A stretch of DNA of 64,000 nucleotides from positions 2,128,501 to 2,192,500 of the forward strand of contig NZ_AP024086.1 of assembly GCF_019703855.1 (NCBI RefSeq). Reading direction: 5' to 3'. Shown here piece after piece: positions 10,676 through 61,988 of the stretch (position 1 is its first letter; each line of letters opens with the position of its first letter). The notes beneath the pieces are model-generated. The model was not told where the DNA came from. It searched no databases and saw only the letters and a program-made list of their open reading frames with translations. The position numbers and the translations under genes were made by a program. This DNA is from Desulfomarina profundi (GTDB taxonomy: Bacteria; Desulfobacterota; Desulfobulbia; Desulfobulbales; Desulfocapsaceae).

Positions 10676-10922
10676 ACCTAAATCCTGCACTTCGGGAACA
10701 AAGAAAAAATATTTATAATGTATAAACAGATAGTTATAATATTACAGTAGGGGCTGTTCTACTCACTATCAGAGTGAGATTGTTTTTTCTTTATTCCCTT
10801 GCCCTGGGGGATTGGCAATTTTATCGAATCTGCTTCGTTATCAAGTGCTTGAAGTATGTTAATACGTCTGCGCCCTTGATGCCTCGCATCTCCGAAAAAC
10901 TTGCCAATTGCAGGATTTAGGT
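10676..10922. repeat. Miniature element family, full-length copy 2
   Basis: A ~247-bp copy with ends ACCTAAATCCTGCA and TGCAGGATTTAGGT, flanked on both sides by ACA, a possible 3-bp target duplication. The two-hairpin interior matches copy 1 at 1911-2163. It lies between the divergent flavoprotein and asparaginase-like genes and ends about 32 bp before the latter's likely start, so it has replaced or become that gene's promoter region. Confidence 0.85.
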
Positions 10923-56108: not shown

Positions 56109-57229
56109 ATGGACAGTGATGATCTAATACTGATTGTTGACGATGACCAACTACACCGTGACCTTGTTGAGCGGTATGCGGGCCTGCAGAACATTCGTTG
56201 CATAAGTGCCGAAAATGGAAAAGACGCACTGAAACAGATGGAAACCGAACCCGTCAGTATTGTCATTACCGATATGGCAATGCCTGAGATGGACGGAATG
56301 GAGCTTCTGCAGCAGATACGAAAACATTATCCGGATACCAATGTCATTGTAATGACAGGATACAGTAAACTCTATTCGTATATTGATGTCATTCGTGAAG
56401 GTGCTTCTGACTTTATCGAAAAACCGTTTAGAAAAGATGAATTTGCAGCCAAGTTGGATCGTGTTTTCCGTGAGAGACACCTGGTTCGTGAACTGAAAAA
56501 GGCCAAGGAAAAAGCTGAAGCCGGCAGCAAGGCCAAAACCGCTTTTCTCTGTGCCATGAGTCACGAGCTGCGTACACCAATGAACGGCATACTCGGTTTC
56601 ACTGATCTGCTTGCCCATTCCAACATCCCGCCACCGGAAAGAAAATATGTCAATATGGTTGGTCAGTCTGCAGACAGACTGATGAAGCTGATCAACCAGA
56701 TTCTCGATTTTTCCACCATCGAAGCCGGGGAAAATGATTTCAAACCCTCCCATTTCTACCTGGTTGATCTCTTCGAGGAACTTTTTGTCACGATAAAACC
56801 TGGCGCTACCGACAAAGGATTGAGACTGGATCTTGAAATCCCTCCTGATCTCATGGACACTATGCTCTTCGGTGACCAGCTGGTTTTGGCCCGAATCCTG
56901 TCCAACCTGATTGATAACTCCATAAAAGCAACCGACCTCGGAATAATTTCAATAAAAGTCCGGAAAGAAAAAAAACTGCCGGATGATACCATCGACCTGC
57001 TCTTTTCTGTGACTGACCAGGGCAACGGTATTCCCCCGAACTGCAAAATGATATTTTCGAACCGTTCACCCAGGCTGAAGACTATATGAACAGAAAACAT
57101 GAGGGTGCCGGCCTGGGCCTGGCCATCTGCGCAAAACTGGTCAGTATGATGAACGGCAGAATCTGGCTGGAAAGTACTCCGGAAATCGGCACAACATTTT
57201 TTTTCACTGTCCGGATGCAGGCTGCATAA
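56109..57229 (+). CDS. Receiver-histidine kinase hybrid (one-base frameshift)
   Basis: A 373-aa cytoplasmic protein with an N-terminal receiver ([18 protein letters not shown], Asp in [12 protein letters not shown], Lys in [10 protein letters not shown]), then HisKA ([20 protein letters not shown]) and HATPase ([14 protein letters not shown]). The printed frame ends in ...NRSPRLKTI. One added C in the C5 run at 57033-57037 gives [19 protein letters not shown] and the G2 box [13 protein letters not shown], ending at 57229. It has no sensor domain of its own, so it must be fed by another kinase. It follows ftcD by 68 bp but has no evident pathway link. Confidence 0.92.
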
Positions 57230-58181: not shown

Positions 58182-59168
58182 TTAACAATTTCCGCCTCTG
58201 TTTTTTCCATCGTCTATCCGTACAAGCTGATCTTGCAGATCATCAATCTCCTGCTGCCAATATTCCCGGGAACCGAACCCGTCAATGGCCCGGGTAGCTC
58301 CCTCCTCTTCCACCTGGTGAGCACACCAGGCCATATAGTGGACAAAACGCATGGCACGCAGGGGCTCAATCAACTGCAGTGTCCGCCTGTCAAAGGGACG
58401 GAATGTCTCATACCCCTCAAGGAAGAAATCAATCTCAACAAAGGATTCATCAACCTCTCCGGGAAGCAGCATCCAGATATCCTGCACAGGTGGCCCCATA
58501 ACCATATCATCAAAATCAATAATATAAAATGATTCACCCGGACGATAAATCATATTGGAAAAATGACAGTCCCCATGGATACGAATATTCTCTATCTCGC
58601 TGAAAAGCGGGGATATTTTATTGATAATCCGTTCAACGGACTCCCGGAGCCGGGGTTTAAGATCAGCAGGGACACAATCCGCCAGCAAAAGATATTCAAG
58701 ATGCGTCCTGGTGGAATGCTCCGGCCCCATCTGAATCCGGTGAATCGCCTGTCCCGTTGCCCCGACACTGTGTACCCTTCCAAGAAGTCTTCCCAGCTGC
58801 AACCACTGTTCATCATCGTATTCATCAAAACTTCGGCCACCGCATTTTGGAAACACGGCATAGTAAAATGACTGAAAATCTGAAAGCGTGGTTCCATCCT
58901 GGAAAACAAGAGGAGAAATCACTGGAATCTCCTGTGCCGCCAGATCAAAAAGAAACTTATGTTCATCCAGGATAGCGGCTTTTGTCCAGCGGCCGGGCCG
59001 GTAAAATTTAACAATCAGCCCGCTCCCATCCTCCTGCTCCAGTTCAAAGACCCTGTTGATATAGCTGTTCAACGGACGAAAAAGATTTGTGCACCGAATT
59101 CCCAGACTTTTCTCCACAAGGGTGAGAACCCGATCCGGGCCAAGATCTTCAAAGACCATTTTTTTCAT
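58182..59168 (-). CDS. SrkA/YihE-like stress-response kinase
   Basis: A ~328-aa eukaryotic-like/APH-fold kinase. The catalytic loop is IRIHGDCHFSNMIY and the metal-binding motif is YIIDFDDMVMGP. N-terminal parts (LFRPLNSYINRVFELEQEDG, IVKFYRPGRWTKAAILDEH) match E. coli SrkA (YihE), which protects against cell-envelope stress. I start at the ATG at 59168 with GGAAG upstream; an in-frame start at 59261 would add 31 unrelated residues. It is divergent from the pseudouridine-synthase gene cluster. Confidence 0.9.
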   Translation of the reverse strand: MKKMVFEDLGPDRVLTLVEKSLGIRCTNLFRPLNSYINRVFELEQEDGSGLIVKFYRPGRWTKAAILDEHKFLFDLAAQEIPVISPLVFQDGTTLSDFQSFYYAVFPKCGGRSFDEYDDEQWLQLGRLLGRVHSVGATGQAIHRIQMGPEHSTRTHLEYLLLADCVPADLKPRLRESVERIINKISPLFSEIENIRIHGDCHFSNMIYRPGESFYIIDFDDMVMGPPVQDIWMLLPGEVDESFVEIDFFLEGYETFRPFDRRTLQLIEPLRAMRFVHYMAWCAHQVEEEGATRAIDGFGSREYWQQEIDDLQDQLVRIDDGKNRGGNC

Positions 59169-59324
59169 TTCTTTCTTCCGTATGTTTTGTATTGTAGTTT
59201 TTATAACCCGTAAGTATCTGACGAGGTAGGTGATTTTCCCGAAATCAAGATACTGTTGCACTCAGTTGTAGTCCAGTTCAGAAAAAAACGCATGGTATTT
59301 GAGAAATGAATTTGAAAAGCTGTA

Positions 59325-59396
59325 ACCTCAATCCTGCAATTGGCAGGTTTATCGGAGATGCGAGGCATCAAGAGCACCGAAGTGCAGGATTGAGGT
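59325..59396. repeat. 72-bp internally deleted copy of the miniature element
   Basis: Perfect 14-bp inverted ends ACCTCAATCCTGCA (59325-59338) and TGCAGGATTGAGGT (59383-59396). The interior (ATTGGCAG, then ATCGGAGATGCGAGGCATCA) is the reverse complement of the right end of the ~250-bp copies, joined directly to their left end (CGAAGTGCAGGATT). It lies immediately before the gene at 59402; its right end supplies GAGGT of the ribosome-binding site. Confidence 0.85.
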
Positions 59397-59401
59397 GAAA
59401 A

Positions 59402-60172
59402 ATGATTTTCTCTGCAACAGAGAGTTCTGGGTTTTGCAAACGGTGTGGTACAGTTCACCGACTGGAGAGTTCACGTGCTGTTACCGCATGTTACAGCCTC
59501 ATGGAGAAACTGGAAAAGCACCAAACCATAGAACTGTTTCAAGCCATCCCCAGACACAGGCATCTCCTGATAACCGACGATCTTTTTGGTAAATCGCGAG
59601 GGAAGATGTTCGGCGTTCTGGAGGGAGTCCGACGAAACGGAAAAACAGTCCGGCTTTATGCCTTTTCCGGACAATTTAACGGATTATGGCATGTCCCCGG
59701 ATGGGCACCGCCTCTTTTTGAAATAAGTGAATTTCAAAAAATCAACTATCCCGAGGAAAAAAGAATCAAGACATTGGGGAAGGAACTCGCCAAAGAGACT
59801 CGTCATTGTGCCAGGTGGCATACCATTAAACGGGAACGCAGAAAACGATCGCGCCTGTTGATGGAAAAAATTCATACCCTTTACCGTTTGACCAATTTTC
59901 ACGGCGAAACAGTCTCCCTGCATGAGGCCTTTGTCGGGCCGGGCGGGATTCCCACCGGAACCGGTGACTGCTGTGCTCCGAAACTGCTCAACCAGGCAGC
60001 TGCACTCCACATAAAACCACTGGGTATTGCAGAATTTTTCTGGGGAAAGGAAAATAAATCCAACAGCAGGCACCATGGCCATTTTTATTCATCCTGCAGC
60101 TCAAAATGCGAGCCGATCCTCGGCTTTCTGCTCTGCGGGCTCAACACACTGACTGAGCCGATAAAAAAATGA
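59402..60172 (+). CDS. N-terminal accessory domain of large RluA-type pseudouridine synthase, as a separate gene
   Basis: A 256-aa protein matching, by motifs I recall, the N-terminal half of ~560-aa RluA-family synthases: FCKRCGTVHRL, RGKMFGVLEGVRRNGKTVRL, AFSGQFNGLWHVPGWAPPLF, GTGDCCAPKLLNQAA, FYSSCSSKCEPILGFLLCGL. It has no catalytic domain. The ATG at 59402 is the first codon after the repeat, and an in-frame stop precedes it at 59396-59398. It overlaps the aminotransferase gene by ATGA, and the catalytic RluA domain is two genes on (61344). The domain's own function is not established; RNA or substrate positioning is plausible. Confidence 0.8.
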   Translation: MIFSATESSGFCKRCGTVHRLESSRAVTACYSLMEKLEKHQTIELFQAIPRHRHLLITDDLFGKSRGKMFGVLEGVRRNGKTVRLYAFSGQFNGLWHVPGWAPPLFEISEFQKINYPEEKRIKTLGKELAKETRHCARWHTIKRERRKRSRLLMEKIHTLYRLTNFHGETVSLHEAFVGPGGIPTGTGDCCAPKLLNQAAALHIKPLGIAEFFWGKENKSNSRHHGHFYSSCSSKCEPILGFLLCGLNTLTEPIKK

Positions 60173-61353
60173 AAATGAAAAATATATTTGCTGACCGTAT
60201 GAACAATATTCCCCGCTCATTTATCAGGGAAATCCTCAAAGTAACTCTCAAACCCGGCATCATCTCCTTTGCGGGAGGACTGCCCAACAGTGACCTCTTC
60301 CCCCTTGAACAACTGCAAACGGCTACAGAAAAGCTCTTTACCTGCGGTGGCAGCACTGTCTTTCAATATGCCACTACGGAAGGATACGTAAAACTGAGAG
60401 AATATATTTCCGCGAGGTACCGCAGCAGGAACAATCTGTATGTTCCCGTTGAAAATATCCTGATCACCAGTGGCTCCCAGCAGGGCCTTGATCTCCTGGG
60501 AAAAATCATGATCAGCAGCGGGGATGGACTCGTTATTGAAGAACCTGGATACCTCGGAGCAATACAGGCTTTTTCCATATACAGCCCCCGTTTTCTTTCT
60601 GTACCGGTTTCTGATGAGGGCATGGACAGAGAAGCACTTCAACATTCACTGGATTCTCATGAAACCAGACTGATCTACACGGTTCCCAATTTCCAGAACC
60701 CTTCCGGTATCACCTACTCGACTGAAAACAGAATACAACTTGCTGCAACAATAGAAAAAACCACTACTTTCCTCATTGAGGATGACCCGTACGGAGAACT
60801 GCGATTCAGCGGAGAACCCAAACCATCTTTTCTATCCCTGATTCCTGAAAACACAATCCTGCTCGGCTCCTTTTCCAAAACCATTGTACCAGGATTCCGT
60901 CTGGGCTGGATTGTTGCCCCACCCCCTGTCATGGAAAAACTGATCACCGCAAAGCAAGCAACAGACCTGCATACCAGCCATTTTACCCAGGCAATTATCC
61001 ACCAGTTCCTGATCGATAACGATGTGGATACACATATTGAGAAAATCGTGCAAACATATGGTAGCCAGAAAATTGCCATGGAAGAGAGTATCAGGGAATT
61101 TTTCCCTCCGAAAGTCACGGTAACTGACCCTGAAGGCGGCATGTTCCTCTGGGTGACACTCCCAGGGGATATGAAGGCGATGGAACTCTTTCACACAGCA
61201 ATTAAAAACGGTGTTGCCTTTGTTCCAGGTGATCCGTTTTATATAGACAGAAAAGATTCCAACTGCCTGCGGTTAAGCTTTGTTTCCACCAACGAAGAAA
61301 TGATCCGAACAGGAATTAAACGATTAGGCGCAACAATCACCCAATGCATGTGA
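60169..61353 (+). CDS. PLP-dependent aminotransferase (2-aminoadipate/MocR-like group)
   Basis: A 394-aa fold-type I enzyme. Motifs are PGIISFAGGLPNSDLFPLEQ near the start, VFQYATTEGYVKLREYI, YTVPNFQNPSGITYS, LIEDDPYGELRFSG (PLP Asp and Tyr), LGSFSKTIVPGFRLGW (catalytic Lys), and a C-terminal LRLSFVS. Closest by pattern to LysN/aromatic aminotransferases lacking the MocR helix-turn-helix. It is inserted between the two halves of the pseudouridine synthase and overlaps both neighbours (4 and 10 bp), so all three are one transcription and translation unit. Confidence 0.9.
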   Translation: MKMKNIFADRMNNIPRSFIREILKVTLKPGIISFAGGLPNSDLFPLEQLQTATEKLFTCGGSTVFQYATTEGYVKLREYISARYRSRNNLYVPVENILITSGSQQGLDLLGKIMISSGDGLVIEEPGYLGAIQAFSIYSPRFLSVPVSDEGMDREALQHSLDSHETRLIYTVPNFQNPSGITYSTENRIQLAATIEKTTTFLIEDDPYGELRFSGEPKPSFLSLIPENTILLGSFSKTIVPGFRLGWIVAPPPVMEKLITAKQATDLHTSHFTQAIIHQFLIDNDVDTHIEKIVQTYGSQKIAMEESIREFFPPKVTVTDPEGGMFLWVTLPGDMKAMELFHTAIKNGVAFVPGDPFYIDRKDSNCLRLSFVSTNEEMIRTGIKRLGATITQCM

Positions 61354-61988
61354 TAGAAAAAAACATACTTTACAACGATGATGATATTGTTGTGGTCAAC
61401 AAACCCGGCGGCCTCCTCTCCGTCCCCGGCAGGGGAGTCGACAGACAGGACTGCGTTGTAACACGGCTTCAAGAGATTTTTCCGGACATGATTGGTCAAC
61501 CGGCAGTTCACAGGCTGGATTTGCATACATCCGGCCTTATGGTTTTAGCCATGACAAAAGCCGCCCACACCAATCTGTCAAAACAATTTGAGAACCGCCT
61601 GGTCACAAAACGATACCAGGCAATACTGGATGGAATTCTTCCCGGAAAAGAAGGCAAAATATCCCTTTCCTTCCGTCTCGATCCGAATAACAGACCGAAA
61701 CAGGTCTATGATCCTCTGAATGGAAAAACCGGTATAACATTGTGGAAAAACCTGGGTGCCGAACCAATCAAGAGAACCAGGGTGGAATTCACTCCCCTGA
61801 CGGGTCGAACCCACCAGCTCCGCCTCCATGCCGCCCATCCAAGGGGACTTGGCATTCCTATTGTTGGTGATTATCTCTACGGTTCAGGAAACGATGGTGA
61901 TCGAATGTTTCTCCATGCTGTTTTTTTAGAATTCAGCCATCCCTCCCTTCAGAGAAACATGCAATTTACATGCCTTCCACCTTTTTAA
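61344..61988 (+). CDS. RluA-family pseudouridine synthase catalytic domain
   Basis: A 214-aa enzyme converting uridine to pseudouridine in rRNA or tRNA. The catalytic Asp is in QPAVHRLDLHTSGLMVLA, with INITIAL strand IVVVNKPGGLLSVPGRGV and the late motif RVEFTPLTGRTHQLRLHAAH. It lacks an S4 domain. In its large-type relatives this is the C-terminal half of a single chain whose N-terminal half here is encoded at 59402-60172. The start overlaps the aminotransferase stop. Confidence 0.92.
   Translation: MHVIEKNILYNDDDIVVVNKPGGLLSVPGRGVDRQDCVVTRLQEIFPDMIGQPAVHRLDLHTSGLMVLAMTKAAHTNLSKQFENRLVTKRYQAILDGILPGKEGKISLSFRLDPNNRPKQVYDPLNGKTGITLWKNLGAEPIKRTRVEFTPLTGRTHQLRLHAAHPRGLGIPIVGDYLYGSGNDGDRMFLHAVFLEFSHPSLQRNMQFTCLPPF

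What the first reader, a model, noticed from the sequence alone, without database searches (positions are those of the whole stretch)
59402..61988. Pseudouridine synthase split into two genes with an aminotransferase gene between them
The genes at 59402-60172 and 61344-61988 match, in order, the N-terminal and catalytic halves of what I know as one ~560-aa RluA-type protein. Here an intact PLP aminotransferase is lodged between them, and all three genes overlap (ATGA, then 10 bp). Translational coupling of an amino-acid enzyme with the two halves of an RNA-modifying enzyme is unusual. It may have arisen by insertion with re-started translation, giving a two-subunit enzyme.
Basis: partly seen in the sequence, partly recalled or inferred. 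Interest (0 to 1): 0.65.

Follow-up and report, generated by a model that had tools for sequence, protein, structure and literature searches.

The report
Two-gene tRNA base editor with passenger
Beside a pseudouridine synthase gene lies a gene for what looks like a tRNA cytidine deaminase, together a two-gene version of an RNA editor known as one protein in Vibrio, and in this one bacterium an unrelated aminotransferase gene has slipped in between them.

Summary
In detail: three complete, overlapping genes, N (59402-60172), AT (60169-61353) and R (61344-61988). N and R do match, in order, the two parts of a fused ~560-aa protein. That protein is of the TrcP type: TrcP of Vibrio cholerae turns C32 of tRNA-Tyr into U and then pseudouridine. 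So N is not part of a pseudouridine synthase but a free-standing relative of TrcP's cytidine-deaminase domain (profile comparison E 9.5e-50; TrcP's four active-site residues present). The aminotransferase did not cause the split: in 83 of 99 distinct N-then-R pairs from other genomes the two are separate adjacent genes, 16 are fused, and none has the aminotransferase between. Congeners have the same locus without it. The split class lacks the long helical domain with which TrcP binds tRNA and carries its own conserved Cys/His set. Some genomes carry N without a close R. I judge it a new, widespread variant of the TrcP editor, not described in the papers I could search; the aminotransferase is a one-genome passenger. 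Activity and substrate (probably tRNA-Tyr C32) are inferred.

The parts
59402..60172 (+). N: free-standing relative of the TrcP cytidine-deaminase domain, 256 aa
   Evidence: hhalign to TrcP-type N-terminal regions E 9.5e-50; no Pfam match; model pLDDT 94.1
59969..59971 (+). codon of C190, counterpart of TrcP zinc ligand C282
   Evidence: alignment; TrcP role from PMC9553926
60032..60034 (+). codon of E211, counterpart of TrcP putative catalytic E303
   Evidence: alignment; TrcP role from PMC9553926
60095..60109 (+). codons of C232 to C236, counterparts of TrcP zinc ligands C324 and C328
   Evidence: alignment
59723..59875 (+). short helical hairpin (residues 108-158) in place of TrcP's long helical domain
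   Evidence: secondary structure of the model; 89 residues of the homologue absent
59435..59458 (+). codons of C12, C15, H19, part of a Cys/His set typical of the class without the long helical domain
   Evidence: invariant in 31; CxxCxxxH in 114 of 117 such proteins, 0 of 9 with the long domain
60169..61353 (+). AT: LysN/KAT-II-type aminotransferase, 394 aa, inserted between N and R in this genome only
61344..61988 (+). R: RluA-type pseudouridine synthase, counterpart of the TrcP PUS domain, 214 aa
   Evidence: PF00849; 51% to the PUS part of a fused homologue
59326..59395 (.). inverted repeat whose hairpin takes up the N ribosome-binding site
   Evidence: z -3.35; one other place in the genome with the same exact arms
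58182..59261 (-). divergent APH-type kinase gene, the shared left neighbour of N in the congeners
   Evidence: PF01636; 70-76% identity in four congeners

Best explanation
N and R are a two-gene form of the TrcP-type tRNA base editor. N, a zinc-dependent cytidine deaminase, converts a cytidine (most likely C32 of the anticodon loop, tRNA-Tyr the first candidate) to uridine; R, made from the same translationally coupled operon, converts that uridine to pseudouridine. Unlike in TrcP the two activities sit on separate proteins and the tRNA-binding long helical domain is missing, so the tRNA must be held in another way (short hairpin, the Cys/His site of this class, or an N-R complex). In this one genome a LysN/KAT-II-type aminotransferase gene was inserted at the N-R junction with overlaps on both sides, so all three genes stay co-translated; I think it is a passenger without a part in editing. 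Shown: the genes, the homology, the conserved active-site residues, the widespread split arrangement, the absence of the insertion elsewhere among the loci seen. Inferred: activity, substrate, order of steps, coupling, passenger status.
For: Profile comparison of 31 N proteins with 6 fused TrcP-type N-terminal regions: probability 100, E 9.5e-50, 213 columns. TrcP residues needed for editing (C282, C324, C328) and the putative catalytic E303 (PMC9553926) fall on N C190, C232, C236 and E211; of 127 distinct N-type proteins, 126 have the first Cys motif and all 126 have Glu, Cys and Cys at the right offsets (the first Cys is required by the search motif, so its conservation there is by construction; it is invariant in the 31). 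R aligns at 51% to the PUS part of a fused homologue. All 29 loci fetched around R orthologues in relatives hold N beside R. 83 of 99 distinct N-then-R pairs are two genes, median 14 nt from the N stop to R residue 7, and the nearest plausible R start overlaps the N stop in 56 of 82. The own tRNA-Tyr has loop CUGUAAA with C32, and MiaA and MiaB, makers of the A37 modification that promotes TrcP editing, are present above cut-off. AT: congeners have the same locus without it; 14 of 57 other genomes have an AT orthologue at 50-57% identity, in 13 of them away from their N-R locus (the 14th, G109, has no close R); the own iPGM-DarP locus lacks the AT that follows these genes in relatives.
Against: No activity data. 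Foldseek and VIA-align on a confident N model found helical-hairpin matches and no deaminase; a sub-domain model failed (pLDDT 57.4). C32 of tRNA-Tyr is found with or without N in the order, so it does not single out the substrate, and 33 of 43 distinct tRNA sequences here have C32. In the TrcP paper the separate NTD and CTD added together made no pseudouridine, and the basic patch needed there (R168, R171, K172, R175, K201, K208) lies in the region that N lacks. 13 of 80 loci have N with room but no R next to it, and 6 of 10 such genomes checked have no close R at all (their completeness is not given), so N may not need R. Near-standalone R fragments occur: in 4 of the 83 two-gene pairs under 150 aa of R is matched.
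Confidence: 0.7

Rival explanations
1. N and R form one obligate two-subunit enzyme, N supplying tRNA binding and deamination to R.
For: Adjacent, overlapping genes in most pairs (56 of 82 overlaps); fused in 16 of 99; in TrcP the PUS part works poorly without the NTD.
Against: N occurs without a close R in 6 of 10 genomes checked; in some loci the order is R-N (L060, L062); no complex was modelled, the tool takes single proteins.
Confidence: 0.35
2. N has lost catalysis and is only an RNA-binding helper of R.
For: N has no match to a known deaminase family and structure searches found none.
Against: All four active-site residues are kept in 126 of 126, also where no R is close; a pure helper would be free to lose them.
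Confidence: 0.1
3. The aminotransferase is functionally tied to the editor, for example reporting amino-acid supply to tRNA modification.
For: Overlapping genes on both sides and no good ribosome-binding site for AT or R.
Against: Present at the locus in this genome alone; orthologues elsewhere sit beside iPGM and DarP genes in the four loci L066, L067, L070 and L076.
Confidence: 0.08
4. The three-gene order is an assembly artefact.
For: Seen in one genome; reads are not available.
Against: All three frames are open and meet in coupled overlaps, AT is diverged from every relative's copy (at most 57% identity) and is missing from its usual place in this genome.
Confidence: 0.05

Closest known systems
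TrcP (VCA0104, Vibrio cholerae), C-to-pseudouridine editor of tRNA-Tyr position 32 (PMC9553926)
   Same: Homologous deaminase and synthase parts in the same order; zinc cysteines and glutamate conserved; tRNA-Tyr with C32, MiaA and MiaB present.
   Different: Two proteins instead of one; long helical domain with the basic patch missing; extra conserved CxxCxxxH and C245; an aminotransferase gene between (this genome only).
RluA (tRNA 32 / 23S rRNA 746 pseudouridine synthase)
   Same: R is of RluA type; E. coli RluA is its closest solved structure by sequence (E 4.2e-38).
   Different: Below the NCBIfam cut-off for RluA (147 against 286 bits); in the tree it groups with TrcP-type synthase domains apart from the 8 paralogues sampled (E. 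coli RluA itself was not in the tree).
LysN / kynurenine aminotransferase II type (PH0207, Thermus LysN)
   Same: AT matches over its length (1x0m E 4e-94, 2egy E 4.4e-87).
   Different: Lies between two editor genes; substrate unknown.

Membership tests
TrcP C-to-pseudouridine editor | deaminase (CDA) domain of the TrcP type | tested here: met
   hhalign probability 100, E 9.5e-50 over 213 columns
TrcP C-to-pseudouridine editor | zinc cysteines C282, C324, C328 and E303 | tested here: met
   C190, C232, C236, E211; invariant in 31
TrcP C-to-pseudouridine editor | RluA-type synthase domain | tested here: met
   R 51% over 208 aa to the synthase part of a fused homologue
TrcP C-to-pseudouridine editor | both domains in one polypeptide | tested here: not met
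   separate genes with AT between them
TrcP C-to-pseudouridine editor | long helical domain with the basic tRNA-binding patch | tested here: not met
   homologue residues 137-225, which hold R171, R175 and K201, have no counterpart in N
TrcP C-to-pseudouridine editor | a tRNA-Tyr with C32 and A36A37A38, and MiaA/MiaB, in the genome | tested here: met
   not specific
TrcP C-to-pseudouridine editor | editing of tRNA C32 to U and pseudouridine | not testable with these tools
   needs enzyme or tRNA data
CDA/ADAT/APOBEC-type deaminases | match to a known deaminase sequence family | tested here: not met
   no Pfam match for N; of 31 N proteins one weak FliJ match only. The paper says TrcP too lacks the consensus
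CDA/ADAT/APOBEC-type deaminases | deaminase fold | tested here: inconclusive
   Foldseek and VIA rows are filled by the hairpin or are weak; sub-domain model too poor to search
RluA family (PF00849) | PseudoU_synth_2 domain above the gathering score | tested here: met
   97.7 bits against 26.8
RluA proper (NF007543) | score above the curated cut-off | tested here: not met
   147 against 286 bits
LysN/KAT-II aminotransferases | full-length match to members of solved structure | tested here: met
   1x0m and 2egy, residues 6-392 and 7-390 of 394

The most novel reading that the evidence does not exclude
N founds a free-standing class of bacterial RNA cytidine deaminases, spread over several phyla and usually paired with, but not tied to, a pseudouridine synthase. 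It binds tRNA without TrcP's long helical domain, perhaps through a second metal site (C12, C15, H19, C245), and in bacteria with N but no close R it stops at C-to-U, so that bacterial tRNA C-to-U editing would be far more common than the Vibrio example suggests.
Probability: 0.4. Interest if true: 0.78.

Novelty: new variant of a known kind. Interest (0 to 1): 0.6.

Why it matters
In the papers I saw, C-to-pseudouridine editing has been shown in Vibrio cholerae only; Kimura et al. listed homologues by sequence in Shewanella, Pseudoalteromonas, Bacteroides, Nostoc, Synechococcus and Myxococcus, all with both parts, while a 2025 paper still calls TrcP so far Vibrio-specific (PMC12588516, passage). 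A natural form without the tRNA-binding domain, two-gene in Desulfobulbales and (by record titles of assembled bins, which can be mislabelled) in Krumholzibacteria, Lentisphaeria and Riflebacteria, fused in Verrucomicrobia and Kiritimatiellaeota, and with N alone in Pedobacter, would separate deaminase from synthase in nature, make the proposed substrate channelling testable, and offer small candidate C-to-U RNA editors. Annotation hides it: fused forms are named RluA-family or pseudouridine synthases (7 of 17 plasmid records) and N a hypothetical protein.

Tried and rejected
Insertion splitting a fused gene: rejected, because congeners are already split.

A correlation of tRNA-Tyr position 32 with the presence of N: no signal. 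81 of 96 genomes match the strict anticodon-arm pattern; by my reading of the list all but one of them (G057, T form only, perhaps a chance match) show the C form, with or without N; 15 of 96 have no match, among them G025 and G042 with the short fusions (one search read).

Structure: whole-model searches returned hairpin or weak matches; the fragment 158-256 folded poorly and was not searched. PDB sequence searches with N gave nothing of note.

A conserved positive charge of the hairpin as substitute for TrcP's basic patch: not supported; net charge runs from -2 to +9 over 31 sequences, this one having +9.

The Cys/His set is not perfect: of 117 distinct proteins without the long domain 3 lack CxxCxxxH (L020 at a contig end, L143, L248) and 2 lack C245's LCG (L119, L248); in the Vibrio homologue L175 a Cys and a His align with C15 and H19. 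L255 had no recognisable first motif and was left out of that table. An earlier count (128 frames, some truncated copies of one gene) was replaced. Sampling is biased: the 80 named loci were found with patterns holding GDCCAPKL and are the best 80 of 570, and most fetched loci come from relatives.

Arrangement: in 4 of the 59 two-gene loci (L106, L115, L134, L143) the R frame is short or broken, and the R frame of congener G096 is shortened (191 aa). Two of the six congeners (G097, G101) have no close R; N was not searched there. In the R tree paralogue branches are very long (4.1 and 4.26) and the root is drawn at the midpoint, so fusion or fission as the direction of change is not proved.

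Print: PMC searches showed no description of a split or LHL-less TrcP; supplements and most subscription journals were not seen. PMC9553926: outline, abstract, the first two of eight parts, the LHL section and the discussion read; PMC12588516 and PMC11802342: passages naming TrcP only; all others only as search listings.

Full report
WHAT IS THERE. The three genes are as reported: N 59402-60172, AT 60169-61353, R 61344-61988, all on the plus strand, overlapping by 4 and 10 nt. AT and R have no good ribosome-binding site of their own (best matches to AGGAGG 3 and 2 of 6, against 4 of 6, with GAGG, for N), consistent with coupled translation.

WHAT N IS. N has no Pfam or NCBIfam match and no convincing relative by sequence in the PDB. 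A tblastn search of plasmid and chromid records found 17 with an N-like region, in Vibrio, Pseudoalteromonas, Photobacterium, Bacteroides and others; 7 are annotated there as RluA family or pseudouridine synthase, 1 as hypothetical, 9 have no listed gene. In the fused ones compared, N matches the N-terminal region and R the C-terminal region. A literature search then turned up TrcP of V. cholerae (PMC9553926; [quoted passage not shown] I did not hold the V. cholerae sequence itself; but the 559-aa homologue of Vibrio sp. HDW18 (L175) has Cys, Glu, Cys, Cys at the same numbers 282, 303, 324 and 328, and N has C190, E211, C232, C236 there. The two families match as profiles with E 9.5e-50.

HOW THE SPLIT FORM DIFFERS. 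N lacks L175 residues 137-225, the part with R171, R175 and K201, invariant in 6 fused homologues and belonging to the basic patch that TrcP needs to bind and edit tRNA. In its place the confident model of N (pLDDT 94.1, pTM 0.91) has two helices, 108-131 and 137-158. Of 127 distinct N-type proteins, 126 have the first Cys motif, all 126 with Glu, Cys, Cys at the right offsets; 9 have the long insert and none of these CxxCxxxH, 117 do not and 114 of these have it. C12, C15, H19 and C245 are invariant in the 31 aligned N proteins.

DISTRIBUTION AND HISTORY. N is in 36 of 96 genomes sampled from the order, this one included. All 29 loci fetched around R orthologues hold N beside R, 27 in the order N-R and 2 as R-N. 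In 80 named loci N and R are two genes in 59 and fused in 4; in 13 there is room but no R next to N, in 4 the contig ends. Over all fetched loci outside this genome there are 99 distinct N-then-R pairs: 83 two-gene and 16 fused, of which 10 come from the TrcP-like plasmid records and 6 lack the long domain (L255 is counted with the ten by its source, as its motif was not recognised). In the R tree the 10 TrcP-like fusions form one group (support 86/73), the split set with the short fusions another (95/97), and the short fusions sit inside the split set at two places. Ten of the 13 genomes with an N lacking a neighbouring R were checked: 4 have a close R elsewhere (53-56% identity), 6 do not.

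THE AMINOTRANSFERASE. It is of LysN/KAT-II type. 14 of 57 other genomes have an orthologue at 50-57% identity; in 13 it lies away from the N-R locus and the 14th has no close R. I printed the surroundings of 10 of these 14: in L066, L067, L070 and L076 AT follows iPGM and DarP genes, in L070 with a small gene between (families checked for L067 and the own copy of iPGM, the rest judged from sequence). The window genome has the same two genes (71% and 52% identity) with no AT behind them and no second close AT (next best hit 26% identity). Congeners G096, G098, G099 and G100 have the divergent kinase-like gene, N and R in this arrangement without AT. So AT was placed between two genes that were already separate; whether it moved within the genome or came from outside is not settled. 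Of 164 loci with N only the 4 overlapping loci of this genome contain AT.

SUBSTRATE. The genome's tRNA-Tyr has the stem-loop ACAGA-CUGUAAA-UCUGU with C32, and MiaA and MiaB are present. But 33 of 43 distinct tRNA sequences have C32, and 8 of them also A36A37A38 (Tyr, Phe, Cys, Trp, two Ser, two Leu) (one of 44 aragorn rows had no clear anticodon and was dropped). tRNA-Tyr keeps C32 with or without N. The substrate is therefore a guess by homology.

ORGANISM. The contig of congener G099 is identical to JAOZLO010000287.1, a Desulfocapsaceae bin, so the window comes from a genus placed in that family.

VERDICT. Its meaning is different: a two-gene relative, without the long helical domain, of a tRNA C-to-pseudouridine editor, widespread and, as far as the searches show, undescribed in this form; plus a passenger aminotransferase in one genome. 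Interest 0.6: the split editor and its stand-alone deaminase make an open question testable; the insertion itself is a curiosity.

Noticed in passing
59326-59395: Inverted repeat with 13-bp exact arms; its predicted hairpin (z -3.35) takes up the N ribosome-binding site. One other place in the genome (C1:1759219-1759287) has the same exact arms; not seen upstream of N in congener L035. Possibly a mobile repeat that now controls N translation.
   Followed up: partly
1916-2159 and 10677-10921: Two inverted pairs of TGCAGGATTTAGG, each about 230 bp apart, perhaps a small repeat element related to the arms upstream of N.
   Followed up: no
L003:1498-3045 (G000:C1 near 4086942): RluA-type pseudouridine synthase fused to a SAM-dependent methyltransferase, 515 aa (PF00849 and PF10672).
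   Followed up: no
56109-57089: Response regulator-histidine kinase hybrid whose ATPase domain match stops at profile position 59 of 111; possibly frameshifted.
   Followed up: no
L060, L062 (G041, G033): An N copy placed after R (order R-N) with a longer hairpin (83 residues against about 53), in genomes that also carry another N.
   Followed up: partly
L167, L170, L172: Pedobacter genomes carry N beside other genes and have no close R.
   Followed up: partly
L176 (Desulfobaculum bizertense plasmid, 72.6 kb): A two-gene N-R pair on a plasmid.
   Followed up: no
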